Assembly: GCF_024171815.1 (NCBI RefSeq)
Contig: NZ_JAMTCJ010000003.1
Coordinates: forward strand, 1 to 64,000
Reading direction: 5' to 3'
From: Williamsia maris
GTDB lineage: Bacteria > Actinomycetota > Actinomycetes > Mycobacteriales > Mycobacteriaceae
DNA length: 64,000 bases
A model generated the notes under the pieces. It was not told the DNA's origin. It saw only the letters and a program-made list of their open reading frames with translations, and did no database searches. Below are positions 50,790 to 59,724 of this stretch, one piece after another. Numbering within the stretch: the stretch's first letter is position 1; every line of letters begins with the position of its first letter. A program made the translations under genes and the position numbers.

Positions 50790-50930
50790 GCGATGATCGT
50801 CCCACCCTGACGCCCCCGCGGCACGACGAGCGAAGGCGGGGTTCGGACGCGGGGAGAGCCGATCGCGTCGTATCGTGATCCCGGCGAACGAGTCCCGATG
50901 GTCACAACGCGCGAAGAAGGACATCTCTCC

Positions 50931-52964
50931 ATGAGCGAGTCCACCACTCTCGACGCAATCGACGAGGACGGATCGCCCACGCTGTCGCGGCGGCAGATCA
51001 ACGTCATCTTCGGCACCATCATGCTGGGCATGCTGCTCGCGGCGCTCGACCAGACGATCGTGTCGACGGCGCTGCCGACCATCGTCGGCGACCTCGGCGG
51101 CTCGCAGCACCTGAGTTGGGTGGTGACGTCCTACATCCTGGCGCAAACCATCGCGTGCGTCGTCGCGGGCAAGTTCGGCGACCTCTTCGGACGCAAGCGC
51201 GTCTTCCAGGTGAGCGTCGTCATCTTCATCCTGGGTTCGCTGCTCTGCGGCCTCGCGCAGGACATGGGCTTCCTCATCGGCATGCGTGCGATCCAGGGCA
51301 TCGGCGGCGGCGGCATCACCGTCACCGCGACGGCACTGATCGGCGATGTCATCCCGCTGCGGGAGCGCGGCAAGTACCAGGGCATGCTCGGCGCGGTCTT
51401 CGGTGTCACCACGGTGATCGGCCCGCTGCTGGGCGGCTTCTTCACCGACCAGCTGTCCTGGCGATGGGCCTTCTACGTCAACGTCCCCATCGCGATCATC
51501 GTGATCATCGCCGCGGCCGCCACGATCCCGGGCCTCAAGGGCGGGGTTCGGCCCAAGATCGACTACCTCGGCGTCGTGTTCGTCGCCCTCGGCGCAAGCG
51601 GCCTGACCCTGGCCACGTCGTGGGGCGGAACCCAGTACGCCTGGGGTTCACCGATGATCATCGGACTCTTCGTCGGATCGGTGGCCGCGCTCGGGGTCTT
51701 CGTCTATGTCGAACTCCACGCCGACGAACCGATCCTCCCGATGCGTCTGTTCACCAAGAAGGTGTTCACCATCGCATCCATCCTCAGCTTCATCGTCGGC
51801 TTCGCGATGGTGGGCGCACTGACGTTCCTGCCGTCGTATCTCCAGTACGTCGCCGGTGCGTCGGCCACCAGTTCCGGGGTTCGTCTGCTCCCGATGGTGG
51901 TCGGGCTGCTGATCACGTCGCTGCTGTCCGGTCAGGTCGTCGGGAGGACCGGGAGGTACAAGATCTTCCCCATCGCCGGAACGGTGATCATGGCGGTCGC
52001 GCTCTACCTGTTGTCGACGATGGACCAGACGACCTCCACCCTCGTCCAGTCGCTGTACATGCTCATCCTCGGCGCGGGCATCGGTCTCGCGATGCAGGTC
52101 CTCACCATCGTCGTGCAGAACACGTCGGACTATCGGGACCTGGGCTCGGCGACCTCGGGCGTGACCTTCTTCCGCACCCTGGGCAGCTCGTTCGGCGCGT
52201 CGATCATGGGGACCGTCTACGCCAACCGACTCGACAGCGTCCTACCGAAAGCCCTTGCCGAGGCCGGCGTCTCACCGTCGGCGGTGTCGGATCCGACTGC
52301 ACTGCACCGACTTCCCGAGGCGCAGCAGACCCCGATCATCGCGGCGTACGCCGAGGCACTGCACACGCCGTTCCTCGCCGTGGTCCCGATCGCGGTGATC
52401 GGACTCCTGCTGGCGCTCGTGCTTCCACAGGTGAAACTGCGCGGCACCTCCGGCGACGCGGTGAAGAGCGCGGGAGAGGGATTCGCCATGCCGGTGTCGC
52501 AGACCTCTGACGAGCAGCTCGAGACCATCGTGGGACGCATCGTGGCGAACACCTCCGACGCCACCGAACAGGTGCTGGCGCGGTCGGGGACGGACATCGA
52601 CCCGGCAACCGCGTGGGGGCTCATCGGGATACGCATCCGCACACGGGTTCTGGACATTCCGGCCCGACAGGACGACGCCGAGGACCGCCTGGGGATCCCG
52701 CACGGCGTCCTCACGTCCTACTACGACGATCTCGTCGACGCGGGTCTCATCGTCCGCACCGACAACGCCTTCGCATTCACCGAGCTGGGCGCGAGAACGA
52801 TGGACGCGATCGGCGACGCCTGGCGGGACTGGCTGCTCGAGCAGCTCCGCGAATGGCTCCCCGCCGAGGACGAGGTCGAACTCGCGGCCAGGGCGCGGGG
52901 GGCCGTGCAACGGTCGGCGCGACGTGCGATGGCCGAACAGCAGAAGGAGATCGTCCGCGCCTAG
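50931..52964 (+). CDS. DHA2-family MFS drug transporter with C-terminal winged-helix-like domain
   Basis: 677 residues. Residues ~20-530 are a 14-helix DHA2 (EmrB/QacA-type) proton antiporter with motif A GKFGDLFGRKRVF and motif C-like GAVFGVTTVIGPLLGGFFTD. The final ~130 residues form a soluble domain with RLGIPHGVLTSYYDDLVDAGLIVRTDNAFAFTELG, which looks like a MarR/DtxR-type winged helix. Similar tails occur in some mycobacterial MFS pumps. ATG at 50931 with AAGGA nine bases upstream; an ATG at 50898 is less likely. Its stop shares CTAG with tetR on the other strand. Confidence 0.88.
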   Translation: MSESTTLDAIDEDGSPTLSRRQINVIFGTIMLGMLLAALDQTIVSTALPTIVGDLGGSQHLSWVVTSYILAQTIACVVAGKFGDLFGRKRVFQVSVVIFILGSLLCGLAQDMGFLIGMRAIQGIGGGGITVTATALIGDVIPLRERGKYQGMLGAVFGVTTVIGPLLGGFFTDQLSWRWAFYVNVPIAIIVIIAAAATIPGLKGGVRPKIDYLGVVFVALGASGLTLATSWGGTQYAWGSPMIIGLFVGSVAALGVFVYVELHADEPILPMRLFTKKVFTIASILSFIVGFAMVGALTFLPSYLQYVAGASATSSGVRLLPMVVGLLITSLLSGQVVGRTGRYKIFPIAGTVIMAVALYLLSTMDQTTSTLVQSLYMLILGAGIGLAMQVLTIVVQNTSDYRDLGSATSGVTFFRTLGSSFGASIMGTVYANRLDSVLPKALAEAGVSPSAVSDPTALHRLPEAQQTPIIAAYAEALHTPFLAVVPIAVIGLLLALVLPQVKLRGTSGDAVKSAGEGFAMPVSQTSDEQLETIVGRIVANTSDATEQVLARSGTDIDPATAWGLIGIRIRTRVLDIPARQDDAEDRLGIPHGVLTSYYDDLVDAGLIVRTDNAFAFTELGARTMDAIGDAWRDWLLEQLREWLPAEDEVELAARARGAVQRSARRAMAEQQKEIVRA

Positions 52965-53533
52965 CGGACGCCGAGCCCCGCGAGCAGGATGTCGATGGCG
53001 TGCTCGACGGTCGTGTCGTCGGGCGGTGAGCCGTACATCAGCGTCGGACAGACGACGACGCCCGAGAGCATCGACACCGCCGCCTCGAGGCGGACGCCCT
53101 CGGCGACCTGCGACAGCAGGCGACGCGCGACGTGTTCGCCGTCGGTGACGAGATCAATTCGGATGCGAGCGATCTCGTCGACGGTCGCGCCCCACTGGGC
53201 GAGCACCATGAGGACACGGTCGAGACCGAGGTCGTTGATCGCATCGCGGAAGGCGTGCAGTTCGGCGATGAGATCGGTGCGCAGATCACCGGTCGGAGTG
53301 TGATGAGGCAGTTCGCCCAGGGCGGCCAGGGCCATGGTCAGCAGGTCCACCCGGGAGGGCCAGTGCGTGTAGAGCGTCGTCTTCGAGTACCCCGCGAGGC
53401 GGGCGACCCTGGCGTGGGTCAGTTCGTCGAATCCGTCGCTGGTCAGCACGTCGAGCGATGCACGGGCGACGTCGGTACGGGTTCGGGCAACGCGGGCGTC
53501 TTCCGCGGTTGCGCCGGCTCGTCCGGGGCTCAT
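52961..53533 (-). CDS. TetR-family transcriptional regulator
   Basis: 190 residues. The N-terminal DNA-binding domain is VARASLDVLTSDGFDELTHARVARLAGYSKTTLYTHWPSRVDLL (~24-67), with the canonical helix-turn-helix. The C-terminal ligand domain is not assignable. ATG at 53533 with AGGAGG upstream. It is divergent from the MAA operon across a 230-base gap that holds an operator-like palindrome, and tail-to-tail with the MFS pump. Control of both itself and the operon is the simplest inference. Confidence 0.9.
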   Translation of the reverse strand: MSPGRAGATAEDARVARTRTDVARASLDVLTSDGFDELTHARVARLAGYSKTTLYTHWPSRVDLLTMALAALGELPHHTPTGDLRTDLIAELHAFRDAINDLGLDRVLMVLAQWGATVDEIARIRIDLVTDGEHVARRLLSQVAEGVRLEAAVSMLSGVVVCPTLMYGSPPDDTTVEHAIDILLAGLGVR

Positions 53534-53601
53534 CGGGGCGAGTCCTCCTCGGGGGTCGGTGGCCGCCGTCTCAGGTGATCGGTCGACGGAAAAATTACCT
53601 C

Positions 53602-53763: not shown

Positions 53764-54429
53764 ATGTCTGCCATTCTTTTCGGCTCCATCAGCACCATCG
53801 CCGACACCTCCGAGCTCCAGCGTCGCGCCTTCAACGAGGCCTTCGCCGCGCACGGCCTGGACTGGAACTGGACCCGCGCCGACTACATCTCGATGCTCGG
53901 CTCGAACGGCGGCGCCAACCGCGTCGCCGAGTACGCGAAGTCCAAGAACGCCGACGTCGACTCCGCCGCGATCCACGCCACGAAGTCCGAGATCTTCCAG
54001 AAGCTGGTGGGCGAGGCCGGCCTGACCCCGCGCCCCGGCGTCGTCGAGACCCTGGCCGCAGCGAAGAAGAGCGACGTGAAGGTCGGGTTCGTGACCACCA
54101 CGTCGGCCGACAACATCTCCGCGCTCCTCGACTCGCTCGGACCCGATGTCACCAAGGAGAGCTTCGACATCATCGTCGACTCCTCCAGCGTGTCCGAGCC
54201 CAAGCCGGACGCCGCGTCCTACACGTTCGCCCTCGACAAGCTGAGTGAGAACGCAGCCGACTGCGTCGCCATCGAGGACAACGAAGGCGGCGTCGCCGCA
54301 GCCTCCGCCGCCGGCGTCACGTGTATCGCCTTCCCGAACGAGAACACCGCCGAGGGCGACTTCAGCGCCGCCGTCGAGTCGGTCCACGCGCTCGACTCCG
54401 GTCGCGTCACCGCTCTCGCGGGCGTCTGA
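53764..54429 (+). CDS. CbbY-like HAD-fold protein lacking the catalytic aspartates
   Basis: 221 residues with the fold and cap of CbbY/phosphoglucomutase-type HAD phosphatases ([24 protein letters not shown]). Motif I should read FDVDGT but here is FGSIST: nucleophile Asp is Gly7 and acid/base Asp is Ile9. Motif II Thr (VTTTS, 110-114), motif III Lys147 (EPKPDAASY) and motif IV EDN (171-173) remain. Ordinary phosphatase chemistry is therefore unlikely. AAGGGA lies six bases before the ATG. First gene of the MAA operon, 103 bases before the cyclase gene. It may bind a sugar phosphate or scaffold the pathway; this is inference. Confidence 0.8.
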
Positions 54430-54532: not shown

Positions 54533-55759
54533 TTGAGCAACCTTCAAGCACAGGTAACCGCCACCGACAGGGCATTTCACGTCGAGGGCTACGAGAAGAT
54601 CGAATACGACCTGATCTACGTCGACGGCGTGTTCGACATCGCCAACACCGAACTCGCCGACAGCTACCGGCCCTACGGTCGGGCGCTGATGGTCGTCGAC
54701 GAGTCGGTCCACGAGATCTACGGCGAGAAGATCCGCGCCTACTTCGCCCATCACGACCTCACCCTGCACGTCGTGCCGGTGCAGATCCGCGAGACCGCGA
54801 AGTCCCTGGAGACATTCGAGCGGATCGTCGGTGAGTTCGACTCGTTCGGGCTCGTCCGCACCGAACCCGTGCTCGTCGTCGGTGGCGGTCTCACCACCGA
54901 TGTCGCGGGCTACGCGTGCGCGAGTTACCGCCGCAACACCCCGTACATCCGCATCCCCACCACGCTGATCGGGCTGATCGACGCCAGCGTGTCGATCAAG
55001 GTCGCGGTCAACTACGGCAAGCACAAGAACCGCCTCGGCGCCTACCACGCGTCGCAGAAGGTACTGCTCGACTTCTCTTTCCTCGCAACGCTTCCCGAGG
55101 ATCAGGTGCGCAACGGCATGGCCGAGCTCATCAAGATCTCGGTGGTCGGCAACTCCGAGATCTTCGACATGCTCGACGAGCACGGCCCCGATCTTCTCCG
55201 CACCCGCTTCGGTCACCTCGACGGCACCCCGGAGCTGCGTGAGATCGGCGACCGCCTCACCTACCAGGCGATCGCCACCATGCTCGAGCTCGAGGCGCCC
55301 AACCTGCACGAGATCGACCTCGACCGGGTCATCGCCTTCGGTCACACCTGGAGTCCCACATTGGAACTCACTCCCCCGGCCCCGTTCTTCCACGGACACG
55401 CGATCAACATCGACATGGCACTGTCGACGACCCTGGCCGCACAGCGTGGGCACCTCTCGGCAAGCGATCGCGACCGCGTGCTCGGCGTGATGAGTGACCT
55501 GGGGCTGTCGCTCGACAGCGAGTACCTGACCGCCGAGCTGCTCACCGAGGCGACCAACTCGATCCTCAAGACCCGTGACGGAATGCTGCGCGCGGCGATC
55601 CCCGACCCGATCGGTTCGTGCCGCTTCCTCAACGACGTCACGACCGACGAACTGGCCGACGCATTGGAGATCCACAAGAAGATCTGCATCGCCTACGACC
55701 GCGAGGGCGCCGGGATCGACATGTTCACCGCCTCCGTGTCGGCGGGCGCGCATGCCTGA
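54533..55759 (+). CDS. mysA: Sedoheptulose-7-phosphate cyclase, probable demethyl-4-deoxygadusol synthase
   Basis: 408-residue sugar phosphate cyclase of the dehydroquinate-synthase fold. NAD-binding [22 protein letters not shown] (113-134), metal ligands Glu198 (NGMAELIK), His271 ([10 protein letters not shown]) and a His of FFHGHA (287/289). GHTWSP rather than GHTxGH marks the sedoheptulose cyclases. Neighbouring mysB- and mysC-type genes favour DDG synthase over valiolone synthases. TTG start with AGGAG eight bases upstream; the protein begins MSNLQAQ. Its stop overlaps the methyltransferase ATG by eight bases. Confidence 0.88.
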
Positions 55760-56576
55760 TGGGGTCGTGGCGCCGCCCCGCCCGGTGACGCCGTCCACCA
55801 TCCTCGCCGACGAGCTCACCGAGATCTGTCGGCAACTCGAGTTCGCCGCCGACGCCGATCCCGCTCTGGTCGACCGCCTGCGCCGATCCCGCGATCTCGC
55901 GGCGGGGATGGACCCCTACCTCGACGTCTGCACGACGCGGGAGTCGCCGGCCCTGGCCGAACTGGCTCGGCGCACCCGCTCGGCGGACTGGTCCACGTCG
56001 ACCGCGGGTACGGGTCTCGAGCAGGAGATGTTGTCGGGTCACGTCGAGGGTCAGGTCCTGAAGTTCCTGGTGCATCTGTCCGGGGCCACTCGGGTGCTGG
56101 AAATCGGCATGTTCACCGGTTACTCGGCGCTGGCCATGGCCGAGGCGCTCCCCGAGAACGGTGAGGTGCTGGCCTGCGAGATGGATCCCGAGGTCGCCCA
56201 CTTCGCCCAGGAGTGCTTCGAGCAGTCCGAGGTGGGGCGTCGGATCGCGGTGGCGGTCGGACCCGCGTCGGAGACCCTCGAGCGTCTGGCGGCGGCAGAC
56301 CGGCAGTTCGATCTCGTCTTCATCGACGCCGACAAGCCGGGATACACCGGCTACCTGCAGCAGCTGCTCGACAGCGAGCTGTTGGCGCCGGGCGGGGTGA
56401 TCGCCGTGGACAACACGCTCATGCAGGGGCAGCCGTGGCTCGACGACGCAGAGGTGACCGCGAACGGTTCGGCGATCGCCGCCTTCAACGCGGCGCTCAC
56501 CTACGACGACCGCATCGAGCAGGTCCTGATCCCGCTCCGCGACGGTCTCACCCTGATCCGTCGAGTGGATCGATGA
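55752..56576 (+). CDS. mysB: O-methyltransferase of MAA synthesis (MysB type)
   Basis: 274-residue class I methyltransferase of the caffeoyl-CoA OMT-like group. SAM motif [21 protein letters not shown] begins at 114, [18 protein letters not shown] contains the metal-binding aspartates, and [13 protein letters not shown] follows. In MAA pathways this enzyme methylates demethyl-4-deoxygadusol to 4-deoxygadusol. ATG lies inside the end of the cyclase gene, and the stop overlaps the ATP-grasp gene (ATGA). Confidence 0.87.
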
Positions 56577-57916
56577 CCACGACCGAGGACAGGTCCACCT
56601 TGACCGCTCCGGCCGGGCCGGGTACCGCCGGCGTCGGTCGGACCGTGGCCGCGCTCGCCGCGCTGGTGGCCACCCTGCCGCTGGACCTCGCGCTGGTCTC
56701 GGCGGCCCTGCTGCGGCCGCGGCCGACGCCGGCTCCCGCAACGGATCGCCGGACGGTTCTCATCACCGGCGGCAAGATGACCAAGTCGTTGTCGCTGGCC
56801 CGGGCGTTCCACGACGCCGGGCACCGGGTCGTGTTGGTCGAGGCACCGAAGTATCGGTTCACCGGCCACCGGTTCTCGCGTGCGGTCGACGCGTTCCACA
56901 CCGTCCCCGAGCCGACGGCCCCCGGGTTCGCCGAGGCCCTGCGTGACGTCGTGGTCGCCGAGGGTGTCGACATCGTCATCCCGGTGTCGTCGCCCGCCTC
57001 GAGCATCCACGAAGCGCGGGCGCGCGCACTGCTCGACGAGCACTGCGAGGTCATCCACGCCGACCTGGACACGGTGACGATGCTCGACGACAAGGACGCG
57101 TTCTCCGCGACGGCAGAGTCGTTCGGCCTCCGGGTCCCCGACCACGCACGGATCACCGACCCGCGCCAGATCGACGACTTCGACTTCCCCGCGGGTCGCG
57201 AGTACATCCTCAAGCGGATCGCCTACAACCCGGTCGGCCGGATGGACCTCACCCGCCTGACCCGCGAGACCCCTGCTCGCAACGCCGAGTTCGCGCGCAG
57301 CCTGTCCATCTCGGAATCCGACCCGTGGATCCTCCAGGAGTTCATCGCCGGCCGCGAGTACTGCACGCACGGCACCGTCCGCAACGGCGCGCTGACCGTC
57401 TACGGCTGTTGCGAGTCGTCGGCCTTCCAGGTGAACTACGCGATGGTGGACAAGCCCGAGATCCGTTCGTGGGTCGAGCATTTCGTCAGTTCCCTCGGGG
57501 CGACGGGTCAGATGTCGTTCGACTTCATCGAGGGCGCCGACGGTCACGCCTACGCCATCGAGTGCAATCCGCGGACCCATTCCGCGATCACCATGTTCTA
57601 CGACCACCCCGATGTCGCGGCGGCCTACCTCGAGGACGAGCACGCGGTGATCACCCCCAGATCGACTGCGCGACCGACGTACTGGATCTACCACGAGCTG
57701 TGGCGACTGCTCACCGAGTCGGGACGTCGCAGGGACCGGCTGCGGACCATCGCCGCGGGGACCGATGCCATCTTCGCGTGGTCGGACCCGCTGCCCTACC
57801 TGCTGGTGCACCATCTGCAGATCCCGTCGTTGCTGTGGAACAACGTGCGGCGTGGGAGTGGATGGACGCGTATCGATTTCAACATCGGCAAGCTCGTCGA
57901 GACGGGCGGCGACTAG
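56573..57916 (+). CDS. mysC: ATP-grasp mycosporine-glycine synthase (MysC type)
   Basis: 447-residue ATP-grasp ligase. A hydrophobic stretch at ~24-47 precedes a Rossmann-like opening VLITGGKMTKSLSLARAF (62-79). The grasp core includes EYILKRIAYNPVGRMDL, WILQEFIAGREYCTHGTV and the metal-binding MSFDFIEGADGHAYAIECNPRTHS. MysC enzymes activate 4-deoxygadusol by phosphorylation and attach glycine to give mycosporine-glycine. The hydrophobic N-terminus could tether it to the membrane. Overlaps mysB by four bases; the mysD-type ATG follows its TAG directly. Confidence 0.88.
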   Translation: MTTTEDRSTLTAPAGPGTAGVGRTVAALAALVATLPLDLALVSAALLRPRPTPAPATDRRTVLITGGKMTKSLSLARAFHDAGHRVVLVEAPKYRFTGHRFSRAVDAFHTVPEPTAPGFAEALRDVVVAEGVDIVIPVSSPASSIHEARARALLDEHCEVIHADLDTVTMLDDKDAFSATAESFGLRVPDHARITDPRQIDDFDFPAGREYILKRIAYNPVGRMDLTRLTRETPARNAEFARSLSISESDPWILQEFIAGREYCTHGTVRNGALTVYGCCESSAFQVNYAMVDKPEIRSWVEHFVSSLGATGQMSFDFIEGADGHAYAIECNPRTHSAITMFYDHPDVAAAYLEDEHAVITPRSTARPTYWIYHELWRLLTESGRRRDRLRTIAAGTDAIFAWSDPLPYLLVHHLQIPSLLWNNVRRGSGWTRIDFNIGKLVETGGD

Positions 57917-58972
57917 ATGGATGGGCAGCGTACCGTGTTGCAGCTCGTCGGCTCCGCCGTCGACGAGTTCCACGCCGATCTGTCCCGCCTGTACGCAGGC
58001 GGTTGCGTCGACGCGGTCGACGACCCGGCCCTCTACGACACCCACCTCGCCTACGTCGGCCCGGACGGCTCGTGGCGCTTCCCGACCGACCTGTCCGAGG
58101 CCTCGCTGACCCGGGCGCCCGCCATGGGTTTGCCTGCGGCGCTGGCGTACATCGAGACATTGCACGTCGACGTGATGGTCCCGCAGATGTTCTGCCTGCC
58201 CGGCATGACCGCCTACCGGGCGCTGTTCGACGCGTTGCGCATCCCGTACGTCGGCAACACCCCCGACCTGATGGCGATCGCCGCGGACAAGGCGAAGACC
58301 CGGGCGATCGTCGCGGCCGCCGGGGTCGCCGTTCCCGCCGGGATCGTGGCCCGCGCCGGCGAACACCCCGAGGTCGACCTGCCGGTCGTCGTCAAACCGG
58401 TCGACGCCGACAACTCGGCCGGTGTCACCCTGGTCCGCGAACCGGTCGATCTCGACCCCGCCATCACGCACGCCCTCGAGCACTCCGAGTCGGCCCTGAT
58501 CGAGTCGTACATCGAGCTGGGCCGAGAGGTGCGCTGCGGCATCATCGTTCGCGACGGCGAACTGGTCTGCCTACCGCTCGAGGAATATGCAGTCGACGCG
58601 CGGTCCAAGCCGATCCGCCGGGCGGACGACAAGCTCGCCCGCTCCGAGGACGGCGATCTGTACCTCGTCGCCAAGGACGACGCGCACGCCTGGATCGTCG
58701 ATGTCGACGACCCGATCACCGAGCGGGTGTGGGAGGCGGCCCGCCGTTGCCACGTCGCCCTCGGCGCACGTCACTACAGTCTCTTCGATTTCCGCATCGA
58801 CCCGAACGGCGATCCCTGGTTCCTCGAGGCCGGGCTGTACTGCTCCTTCTCCCGCGGCAGCGTGGTCGCGGTCATGGCCGCCGCCGCCGGGATCGACGTC
58901 ACCGAACTGTTCGCGACCACGCTTCGTGAGCTCACCCGCGAGAGGACATCGTCATCGACCACACAGCACTGA
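57917..58972 (+). CDS. mysD: D-Ala-D-Ala ligase-like MAA synthetase (MysD type)
   Basis: 351-residue ATP-grasp ligase of the Ddl family. The features are CLPGMTAYRALFDALRIPYVGN, DKAKTRAIVAAAGVAVPAG, VVVKPVDADNSAGVTLV, the ESYIELGREVRCGII segment and metal-binding LFDFRIDPNGDPWFLEAG. MysD homologues condense mycosporine-glycine with a second amino acid (serine, threonine or alanine) to form iminomycosporines such as shinorine; which amino acid is not predictable. The gene order rules out a cell-wall Ddl. Its end overlaps the oxygenase gene. Confidence 0.87.
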   Translation: MDGQRTVLQLVGSAVDEFHADLSRLYAGGCVDAVDDPALYDTHLAYVGPDGSWRFPTDLSEASLTRAPAMGLPAALAYIETLHVDVMVPQMFCLPGMTAYRALFDALRIPYVGNTPDLMAIAADKAKTRAIVAAAGVAVPAGIVARAGEHPEVDLPVVVKPVDADNSAGVTLVREPVDLDPAITHALEHSESALIESYIELGREVRCGIIVRDGELVCLPLEEYAVDARSKPIRRADDKLARSEDGDLYLVAKDDAHAWIVDVDDPITERVWEAARRCHVALGARHYSLFDFRIDPNGDPWFLEAGLYCSFSRGSVVAVMAAAAGIDVTELFATTLRELTRERTSSSTTQH

Positions 58973-59724
58973 ACCCGGTCGGCGCCCGCGTCACCGGCAT
59001 CCGGGTCGAGGCCCTGACCGACGCGCAGACCGACCTGCTGCGCAACCTGTTGGCCCACCACGGCGTGATCATCCTGCCCGATCAGCACATCGACGACGAT
59101 CAGTTCCGGCTGTTCCTGCGGAGCTTCGGCGAGACCGTGTTCACCGAGGGTGAGACCCCGGTCCCGGGGCACCCCGACCTCAACGTCATCAGCAACGTCG
59201 GCCGGACGACTCCCCCACGCTCGCAGTTCCACGTCGACACCAGCTACGTGCGCCACCCACCCGCCTACACCGCCCTGCGTGCGGTCGACGTCCCCGAGCA
59301 GGGTGGACAGACGTTGTTCAGCAACCAGTTCCGCGCGTTCGAGACCCTGCCCGCCGACGTGCGGGAGAACCTGCAGGACCGCACGGTCACGCATGTGATG
59401 ACCGGACTCGATCTCGACGAGGACGCCGAGACCTCCGCCGAGCATCCGCTGTGTCGGGTGCACCCGGTGTCCAAGCGCACCGCGCTGTACCTCTCGACGC
59501 CGCAACGCTGCGCCGCCGTGAGCGGTCTCAGTCCGGAGGAGGCCGAGTACACCGTCGCGTCGCTGCTCGAACACAGCACGCGTGAGGACAACGTCCTGCG
59601 GCACAACTGGTCTCCCGGCGACGTGGTCATGTGGGACAACCGCGCCGTGATGCACCGCGCCGACCACTCCGGTGTCGTCGGTGACCGCGTCATGCACCGC
59701 GGCATGGTCGCCGAGGCCGTCTGA
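58954..59724 (+). CDS. TauD-family Fe(II)/2-oxoglutarate oxygenase, non-canonical start
   Basis: About 256 residues. The facial triad is FHVD (His93, Asp95) and VMH (His234), with 2OG-binding Arg249 in VMHRG (numbered from the codon at 58954). The TauD N-terminus NPVGARVTGIRVEALTDAQ is present, but its frame has no ATG, GTG or TTG between the stop at 58927 and residue 33. AGAGGA (58941-58946) sits seven bases before ATC at 58954, which I take as start; CTG at 58969 (CTGA overlap with the mysD-type stop) is the alternative. A sequencing error is possible. Likely tailors the MAA product; substrate unknown. Confidence 0.78.
   Translation: MDHTALNPVGARVTGIRVEALTDAQTDLLRNLLAHHGVIILPDQHIDDDQFRLFLRSFGETVFTEGETPVPGHPDLNVISNVGRTTPPRSQFHVDTSYVRHPPAYTALRAVDVPEQGGQTLFSNQFRAFETLPADVRENLQDRTVTHVMTGLDLDEDAETSAEHPLCRVHPVSKRTALYLSTPQRCAAVSGLSPEEAEYTVASLLEHSTREDNVLRHNWSPGDVVMWDNRAVMHRADHSGVVGDRVMHRGMVAEAV

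What the first reader, a model, noticed from the sequence alone, without database searches (positions are those of the whole stretch)
53764..54429. HAD motif I replaced (FDVDGT to FGSIST) while all other motifs are kept
Gly7 and Ile9 stand where the nucleophile and acid/base aspartates belong, yet the motif II Thr, motif III Lys and motif IV Glu-Asp-Asn are intact and the cap is well conserved. This looks like a retained, repurposed fold rather than decay. As first gene of a pathway that uses a seven-carbon sugar phosphate, it could bind such a substrate or regulate the cyclase.
Basis: partly seen in the sequence, partly recalled or inferred. Interest (0 to 1): 0.62.

Follow-up and report, generated by a model that had tools for sequence, protein, structure and literature searches.

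The report
Dead phosphatase in bacterial sunscreen operon
In the gene set with which many actinobacteria seem to make small UV-absorbing sunscreen molecules, a sugar-phosphatase-like protein has kept its fold and binding residues but lost the acids needed for phosphatase chemistry, and it is inherited with the pathway so faithfully that it very probably has a new, still unknown job there.

Summary
The 221-aa protein at 53764-54429 is a CbbY-like HAD protein with motif I FGSIST. G7 and S8 are invariant in 102 distinct pathway-type homologues, I9 in 101. CbbY Glu17 and His20 changed too (Ser, Gln). Motif II Thr, motif III Lys, motif IV Glu-Asp and the CbbY cap residues are unchanged. These proteins form one clade apart from the DxD relatives sampled. 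In the window's family the gene and the cyclase gene (DDGS) occur in exactly the same 55 of 401 genomes. It lies directly 5' of DDGS in 73 of 80 named loci (median gap 29 nt).

The operon is a mycosporine-like amino acid (MAA) cluster in Williamsia. A 2025 preprint already reports conserved HAD and TauD genes in such clusters; the passages I read do not mention the missing DxD and say both are absent from Cyanobacteriota, where I find them.

Best reading: a non-hydrolytic, ligand-binding pseudo-phosphatase serving the MAA pathway. Whether its partner is the cyclase or the TauD oxygenase is unresolved: co-evolution leans to TauD, yet the gene survives without it. Ligand and mechanism are inferred.

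The parts
53764..54429 (+). CbbY-like HAD protein (221 aa) with motif I FGSIST instead of FDxDGT; first gene of the operon
53779..53796 (+). codons of residues 6-11, FGSIST (degenerate motif I)
   Evidence: G7 and S8 in 102 of 102, I9 in 101 of 102 pathway-type rows
54533..55759 (+). DHQ-synthase-family sugar-phosphate cyclase, read as demethyl-4-deoxygadusol synthase (DDGS, MysA-type)
   Evidence: Pfam DHQ_synthase 1e-29; 61-66% identical to cyanobacterial cyclases, the fetched ones lying beside OMT and ATP-grasp genes; 39% to Streptomyces clavuligerus genes annotated sedoheptulose 7-phosphate cyclase
55758..56576 (+). O-methyltransferase (MysB-type)
   Evidence: Pfam Methyltransf_3 1.4e-51
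56573..57916 (+). ATP-grasp ligase (MysC-type)
   Evidence: NCBIfam PRK06849 5.7e-124, above its cut-off
57917..58972 (+). D-Ala-D-Ala-ligase-like ATP-grasp enzyme (MysD-type)
   Evidence: Pfam Dala_Dala_lig_C 1.6e-16
58954..59724 (+). TauD/TfdA-type Fe/2-oxoglutarate oxygenase. First ATG/GTG/TTG is TTG 59050; conserved N-terminal sequence in frame suggests a start near ATC 58954
   Evidence: Pfam TauD 1.8e-48; upstream frame compared with six relatives; ortholog at E 1e-60 in 54 of the 55 HAD+ genomes of the family
52961..53563 (-). divergent TetR-type regulator, likely regulator of the operon (inferred from position)
   Evidence: Pfam TetR_N 4.2e-8; a TetR match lies divergently upstream of the HAD in 35 of the 80 loci
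50898..52964 (+). DHA2-type MFS efflux transporter with a C-terminal extension; link to the pathway not shown
   Evidence: NCBIfam TIGR00711 1.1e-81; Pfam MFS_1 covers residues 41-434 of 688

Best explanation
SHOWN: the gene is a member of a monophyletic, strongly conserved CbbY-derived family in which the catalytic floor of the HAD site (both motif I aspartates, plus the positions of CbbY Glu17 and His20) has been neutralised, while the phosphate-binding Thr and Lys, the motif IV acids and the CbbY cap residues are kept; it is a regular gene of actinobacterial MAA-type clusters. INFERRED: it is not a phosphatase. It most likely binds, without hydrolysing it, a phosphorylated sugar or pathway intermediate in the old CbbY pocket (sedoheptulose 7-phosphate is the obvious candidate) and acts as an accessory protein of the MAA enzymes, co-transcribed with the cyclase and probably in contact with or controlling a pathway enzyme. 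I put about 0.9 on 'dedicated MAA pseudo-phosphatase', and about 0.35 on 'sugar-phosphate-binding helper or regulator of the cyclase step' as the exact role.
For: Same 55 of 401 family genomes hold the HAD and DDGS at the cut-offs used, the other 346 hold neither. DDGS found in 58 of 58 HAD+ genomes tested, including four whose HAD lies in cyanobacterial loci; in G262 it is split over two contigs. In 73 of 80 named loci the HAD is directly 5' of DDGS on the same strand, median gap 29 nt, 11 with overlapping ends (DDGS starts extrapolated from the alignment). FGSI clade 98/90, pathway-type subclade 100/98. N24, W36, Y41, G49, G50, R53, K74, R90, T111, K147, Y153, E171, D172 invariant in 102 of 102 rows, H71 in 101; conserved CbbY positions that switched are 7, 8, 9, 16, 19, 75, 110 and 173. 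dN/dS 0.08 against 0.12-0.16 for OMT, ATP-grasp, DDL and TauD. Fold match to CbbY 4uat and 4uau, D10N mutants solved with xylulose bisphosphate bound, so loss of Asp10 alone does not prevent binding.
Against: No ligand, activity or interaction has been tested. Most cyanobacterial DDGS genomes lack the HAD (0 of 16 DDGS-first genomes), so the cyclase does not need it in general; on the DDGS tree the HAD-in-cis label changes at least 3 times. HAD distances track TauD (partial correlation 0.42) and OMT (0.31) better than the adjacent DDGS (0.19). In two Calothrix genomes HAD plus TauD lie apart from a DDGS of the classical HAD-less clade (about 140 kb apart in G782; on another contig in the G791 MAG). 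A Roseobacter plasmid homologue with FGSIGT has no annotated MAA genes within 8 kb, so the altered motif may predate the MAA role.
Confidence: 0.5

Rival explanations
1. Oxygenase partner: the HAD is an accessory or stabilising subunit of the TauD oxygenase (or handles its unstable product) in the step that trims the amino acid of a shinorine-type MAA to give palythines; any old sugar-phosphate pocket is a relic or has a new ligand.
For: In 37 DDGS+ genomes each of the 11 with a full TauD ortholog, and both with a TauD remnant at the cluster, has the HAD; none of the 18 HAD-less genomes has the ortholog, though five of them have weaker TauD-family matches (1e-20 to 1e-30) away from the cluster. 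TauD in 54 of 55 HAD+ family genomes. HAD-TauD is the strongest partial correlation of the HAD (0.42 [0.31-0.49], 64 loci; above HAD-DDGS in 99.7% of 300 resamples, 96% without cyanobacteria, 93% in the 49 closest loci). In six of seven cyanobacterial loci TauD follows the HAD (starts about 0.8 kb apart): divergent from DDGS in L107, L111, L118, without DDGS nearby in L113 and L119, in line and 5' of DDGS in L102. Preprint PMC11888242 also notes HAD-TauD co-localisation and cites unpublished palythine production (passages read).
Against: The HAD is kept where TauD is absent or broken: G609, G788/L100, G1077, G1110, G1133, G1185, L063, L105, L114 (L114 is in a 1.9-Mb genome that may be incomplete), L091 and the truncated TauD matches of L110 and L115. 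Several of these clusters show no alternative oxygenase nearby by my reading of ORF starts (not scanned with family models). HADs of such clusters keep the binding residues but deviate slightly more at 66 conserved positions (mean 1.42 in 12 rows against 0.90 in the rest; not tested).
Confidence: 0.27
2. New enzyme: the remodelled site (S8, S16, Q19, N173 plus FGSI-only F190-P191-N194) catalyses a different, non-phospho-aspartate reaction in the pathway.
For: New invariant residues go with the loss of the acids (S16, Q19, N173, F190, N194 in 102 of 102, P191 in 101; also 47 of 47 in rows found without sequence patterns), which looks like remodelling rather than plain loss.
Against: I know of no HAD reaction that uses such a site (recalled; only one paper search, touched it and found nothing). 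HAD-less clusters in the literature make the same core compounds (recalled). New invariant residues can equally serve an interface.
Confidence: 0.13
3. It is still a phosphatase, with a Ser/Thr or a water replacing the aspartate nucleophile.
For: Motif II, III and IV kept.
Against: Both aspartates and the positions of Glu17 and His20 are replaced in 102 of 102 rows. HAD phosphoryl transfer through an aspartyl phosphate is established knowledge.
Confidence: 0.05
4. A decaying phosphatase carried along by the operon.
For: Loss of catalytic residues alone would fit.
Against: Conserved in Actinomycetota and Cyanobacteriota, dN/dS 0.08, other motifs invariant, and kept while TauD is reduced in L110 and L115.
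Confidence: 0.03

Closest known systems
CbbY, xylulose-1,5-bisphosphate phosphatase (PDB 4uat, 4uau, 4uar; plant CbbYA 4uav)
   Same: Fold (TM 0.88-0.90, 36-37% identity to the R. sphaeroides chains), cap residues, motif II Thr, motif III Lys, motif IV Glu-Asp
   Different: Motif I DxD, Glu17 and His20 replaced; here it lies in an MAA-type operon, whereas several plasmid CbbY relatives lie beside RuBisCO, cbbX, rpe or tkt genes
HAD gene of MAA clusters reported by GATOR-GC (PMC11888242, 2025; abstract and passages read)
   Same: Almost certainly the same gene: HAD and TauD called well conserved (>60%) and co-occurring in a survey of 131 unique MAA windows, in Actinomycetota, Pseudomonadota and Bacillota
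   Different: The passages found do not mention the lost DxD, say HAD and TauD are not in Cyanobacteriota, and leave the HAD role unvalidated; here the motif loss, the clade, cyanobacterial copies and HAD-without-TauD clusters are added
MysI TauD/TfdA dioxygenase of Nostoc sp. UHCC 0926 (PMC10510106; passages read) and MysH
   Same: The TauD gene of this operon belongs to the same broad oxygenase class proposed for palythine formation
   Different: The passages found report no HAD gene with mysI; direct homology of the two TauD proteins was not tested
Roseobacter litoralis plasmid pROLI81 HAD (WP_187432052.1)
   Same: FGSIGT motif I, sister to the pathway-type clade
   Different: 39-40% identical; no annotated MAA genes within 8 kb

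Membership tests
HAD subfamily IA, CbbY-like | Rossmannoid core with C1 cap, CbbY signature residues | tested here: met
Catalytically active HAD phosphatase | motif I DxD (nucleophile and acid/base) | tested here: not met
   G7 and I9; 102 of 102 pathway-type rows without DxD
Catalytically active HAD phosphatase | motif II Thr/Ser, motif III Lys, motif IV acids | tested here: met
   T111, K147, E171, D172 in 102 of 102
Catalytically active HAD phosphatase | phosphate release | not testable with these tools
   needs the purified protein
MAA (mys) gene cluster | cyclase, O-methyltransferase, ATP-grasp and D-Ala-D-Ala-ligase-like genes in a row | tested here: met
MAA (mys) gene cluster | cyclase is a DDGS rather than EEVS or DHQS | tested here: inconclusive
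   61-66% to cyclases in cyanobacterial mys-like loci, 39-42% to other cyclases; no characterised DDGS was compared directly
MAA (mys) gene cluster | MAA product | not testable with these tools
   needs chemistry
Dedicated MAA-HAD clade | monophyly of FGSI proteins | tested here: met
   98/90, 97% of 200 bootstrap trees, 80 rows
Dedicated MAA-HAD clade | members co-occur with DDGS | tested here: met
   55 of 55 in the family, 58 of 58, 78 of 80 named loci within the locus and the other two elsewhere in the genome; the Roseobacter sister lies outside the clade and its chromosome was not searched
TauD partner subunit | strict co-presence with TauD | tested here: not met
   HAD without a TauD ortholog in 6 of 19 HAD+ DDGS genomes, or 8 of 19 counting the two TauD remnants

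The most novel reading that the evidence does not exclude
The family is not just a dead phosphatase but a HAD protein rebuilt for a reaction without an aspartyl nucleophile, or a sugar-phosphate-gated switch, in sunscreen biosynthesis, with a set of new invariant residues (S8, S16, Q19, N173, F190-P191-N194) that arose with the loss of the catalytic acids; it can move between phyla together with a TauD oxygenase as a tailoring module.
Probability: 0.18. Interest if true: 0.75.

Novelty: new variant of a known kind. Interest (0 to 1): 0.55.

Why it matters
MAAs are natural sunscreens of commercial interest, and their actinobacterial route carries one conserved gene without a role. Knowing that it is very unlikely to be a phosphatase changes the experiment: look for binding, partners and regulation rather than phosphate release. 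It also offers a clean case of a HAD enzyme that lost its nucleophile early, kept its binding residues, and was then fixed in a pathway and apparently transferred between phyla. Heterologous producers that leave the gene out because it looks like a stray hydrolase may lose yield.

Tried and rejected
Local mutation or sequencing error: rejected, 8 of 8 genus genomes and 102 of 102 rows share the change. Decay: rejected. HAD-TauD fusion suggested by an 844-aa open frame in G018: looked at; TauD lies just upstream but the two matches are not in one frame, by my count from the coordinates. Simple TauD accessory: weakened by HAD+ TauD- clusters. Simple cyclase accessory: weakened by HAD-less DDGS genomes and the Calothrix arrangement. 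Viral or phage relatives: none found with the queries used. Literature: the listings gave one paper, PMC11888242, that links a HAD gene to MAA clusters; PMC9385824 (an algal transcriptome) also holds both words and was not opened. No listing names a nucleophile-less HAD there. These searches cover open-licence PMC text only; subscription papers may hold it.

Limits: E-value cut-offs define presence; genome draws are samples; the shared-55 result compares two searches that the tool describes as the same even draw (401 genomes each; I compared the matching handles by eye). The genome scan needed one of two patterns, over residues 13-21 or 187-194; pattern-free rows agree. DxD rows are those for which a locus was fetched; weak HAD matches without a locus, and the own-genome paralogues L002-L005, were not in the residue table or tree. 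dN/dS by Nei-Gojobori on GC-rich genes is rough and used only as a comparison. Partial correlations treat non-independent pairs, so resampled intervals are too narrow. The HAD tree used 59 of 102 pathway-type rows (rows at least 80% identical to a kept row dropped), L039 and 20 DxD rows. In the DDGS tree the row L212 is a second copy of the L102 genome and carries the wrong phylum tag, which does not change the HAD label. G782 and G786 were centres brought in through the HAD, and G788 had also been reached through it; without these three, 16 of 34 DDGS+ genomes have the HAD. Most of the cyanobacterial HAD loci are MAGs or short contigs and could hold binning errors; L119 lies in a nearly complete 8.95-Mb Calothrix chromosome.

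Full report
WHAT WAS CHECKED. The ORF at 53764-54429 is real and reads [27 protein letters not shown].... Pfam gives HAD_2 and Hydrolase above their cut-offs. Of the 25 NCBIfam matches shown (26 in all), only HAD-IA variant 3 is above its cut-off; the best-scoring are beta-phosphoglucomutase models far below theirs. The best solved relatives are R. sphaeroides CbbY (8.8e-39) and plant CbbYA. The genome holds four further weak HAD relatives at 24-31% identity.

NEIGHBOURHOOD. Downstream on the same strand are a DHQ-synthase-family cyclase, an O-methyltransferase, an ATP-grasp enzyme, a D-Ala-D-Ala-ligase-like enzyme and a TauD oxygenase; upstream are a divergent TetR gene and an MFS efflux gene. 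This is the layout of an MAA (mycosporine-like amino acid) cluster. The closest named relative is a Williamsia MAG (97%).

NOT A LOCAL MUTATION. All 8 genomes of the genus carry FGSIST. In 401 genomes of the family, 55 have a relative at 53-100% identity; the next matches are at 31-33%. A scan of named genomes kept the best 80 of 105 confirmed loci, from Rhodococcus, Williamsia, Mycolicibacterium, Aeromicrobium, Nocardioides, Pseudonocardia, Actinomycetospora, Solirubrobacter and others, and from cyanobacteria (Chamaesiphon, Drouetiella, Leptolyngbyaceae, Calothrix). All 80 read [FL]GSI[SG][ST]: FGSIST 66, LGSIST 4, FGSIGT 4, FGSISS 3, FGSIGS 2, LGSISS 1. The scan patterns cover residues 13-21 and 187-194, not motif I.

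RESIDUES. Of 155 collected proteins, 123 are distinct: 103 have G7 and I/L9, 20 have DxD, none is intermediate. Against 16 CbbY rows, the conserved positions that switched are CbbY D8, V9, D10, E17, H20, the Ser after motif IV Asp, and two mild ones (A to V at 110, T to S at 75). Kept: N24, W36, Y41, G49, G50, R53, H71, K74, R90, T111, T112, K147, P148, Y153, E171, D172, G176. New invariants include S16, Q19, N173, F190 and N194, also 47 of 47 in the distinct rows found without patterns. Which of these touch ligand is recalled or inferred, as no coordinates were on hand. So the catalytic floor was changed while the walls stayed.

PHYLOGENY. FGSI rows are one side of a branch at 98/90 (97% of bootstrap trees), with the Roseobacter plasmid protein sister to the pathway-type clade (100/98). 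Cyanobacterial copies nest inside actinobacterial ones, as by transfer. That Roseobacter gene has no annotated MAA genes within 8 kb.

LINK TO THE PATHWAY. DDGS lies within the fetched locus in 78 of 80; the two exceptions, L113 and L119, are both Calothrix, and their genomes (G791, G782) carry DDGS elsewhere. In 73 of 80 the HAD is directly 5' of DDGS within 400 nt, median gap 29 nt, 11 with overlapping ends (starts extrapolated from the alignment); in the window the gap is 103 nt. In the family, DDGS and the HAD occur in the same 55 of 401 genomes. Searching by DDGS: 5 of 396 phylum genomes (G000 and one more from the family, three from outside), 16 of 220 in the family sampled around a Pseudonocardia genome, 17 of 244 in the phylum of Calothrix G782. 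Of the 37 tested (G000 left out), 19 have the HAD: 4 of 4 phylum, 14 of 16 of the Pseudonocardia-centred family, 1 of 17 cyanobacteria, that one being the centre. In 20 DDGS loci without the HAD nearby (L184-L203, from 19 genomes, one of them G782) no HAD relative was found within the 11-17 kb fetched at E 1e-6.

TAUD OR CYCLASE? TauD orthologs: 11 of 37 DDGS+ genomes, plus two remnants at the cluster, all HAD+; no ortholog in 18 HAD- genomes; 54 of 55 in the family. HAD without TauD: G609, G788, G1077, G1110, G1133, G1185, L063, L105, L114, L091. In L110 and L115 the TauD match is truncated while the HAD is intact. Five of the six DDGS-first cases come from one clade of the DDGS tree, so the number of independent losses is smaller than the count. 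The Calothrix DDGS genes belong to the classical HAD-less cyanobacterial clade (100/100), while their HAD sits beside TauD, in G782 about 140 kb from DDGS and in the G791 MAG on another contig. On the DDGS tree the HAD-in-cis label needs 4 changes, at least 3 of them forced by starred branches. Distance partial correlations of the HAD: TauD 0.42, OMT 0.31, DDGS 0.19, ATP-grasp 0.10, DDL -0.03 (64 loci). So the gene belongs to the pathway as a whole more firmly than to either partner.

SELECTION AND FOLD. Median dN/dS over 63 pairs: HAD 0.08, DDGS 0.037, ATP-grasp 0.121, TauD 0.127, OMT 0.146, DDL 0.157. The AlphaFold model from 44 aligned sequences has pLDDT 95.6 and pTM 0.91; Foldseek's best hits are CbbY D10N with XuBP, TM 0.88 and 0.90.

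READING. The evidence is strong for a conserved MAA-dedicated pseudo-phosphatase, weak for any one mechanism. Retained phosphate and cap residues argue that a phosphorylated ligand is still bound. S7P is the phosphorylated sugar that enters this pathway (established knowledge), and the HAD is in one operon with the enzyme that uses it; hence my preferred role, with the TauD-partner role close behind.

LITERATURE. PMC11888242 (abstract and passages read; [quoted passage not shown] PMC10510106 (passages) names a TauD-type MysI. PMC10212915 (passages) gives background on CbbY.

Noticed in passing
window 58954-59050: The TauD reading frame runs 96 bases upstream of its first TTG with conserved N-terminal sequence and no ATG/GTG/TTG; five other relatives have ATG or GTG at about the place where this genome and L041 have ATC, so an ATC start is possible.
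   Followed up: partly
L102, L106, L107, L111, L113, L118, L119: Cyanobacterial records with the FGSI HAD, with TauD beside it in six of the seven (L106 ends just after the HAD, and its 2.7-Mb genome shows no TauD), contrary to the published statement that these genes are absent from Cyanobacteriota. Most are MAGs or short contigs; L119 is in a nearly complete chromosome.
   Followed up: yes
L039 7992-8663 (Roseobacter litoralis plasmid pROLI81): A HAD with FGSIGT and no annotated MAA gene within 8 kb; a possible older, pathway-independent FGSI family in alphaproteobacteria.
   Followed up: partly
window 50898-52964: MFS efflux protein with a C-terminal extension of about 150-250 residues beyond the transporter domain that reads like a winged-helix region; not searched on its own.
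   Followed up: no
L094: Mycobacterium MAG cluster in which the ATP-grasp match follows DDGS directly and no O-methyltransferase match was found in the locus.
   Followed up: no
L110, L115, L209, L210: Actinomycetospora-type clusters with only a truncated, diverged TauD match (42-44%) while HAD and the four mys-type genes match without stops.
   Followed up: partly
G139, G255, G266, G286, G313, G318, G333: Second cyclase relatives at 40-42% identity in seven HAD+ genomes, perhaps EEVS-like and from another pathway.
   Followed up: no
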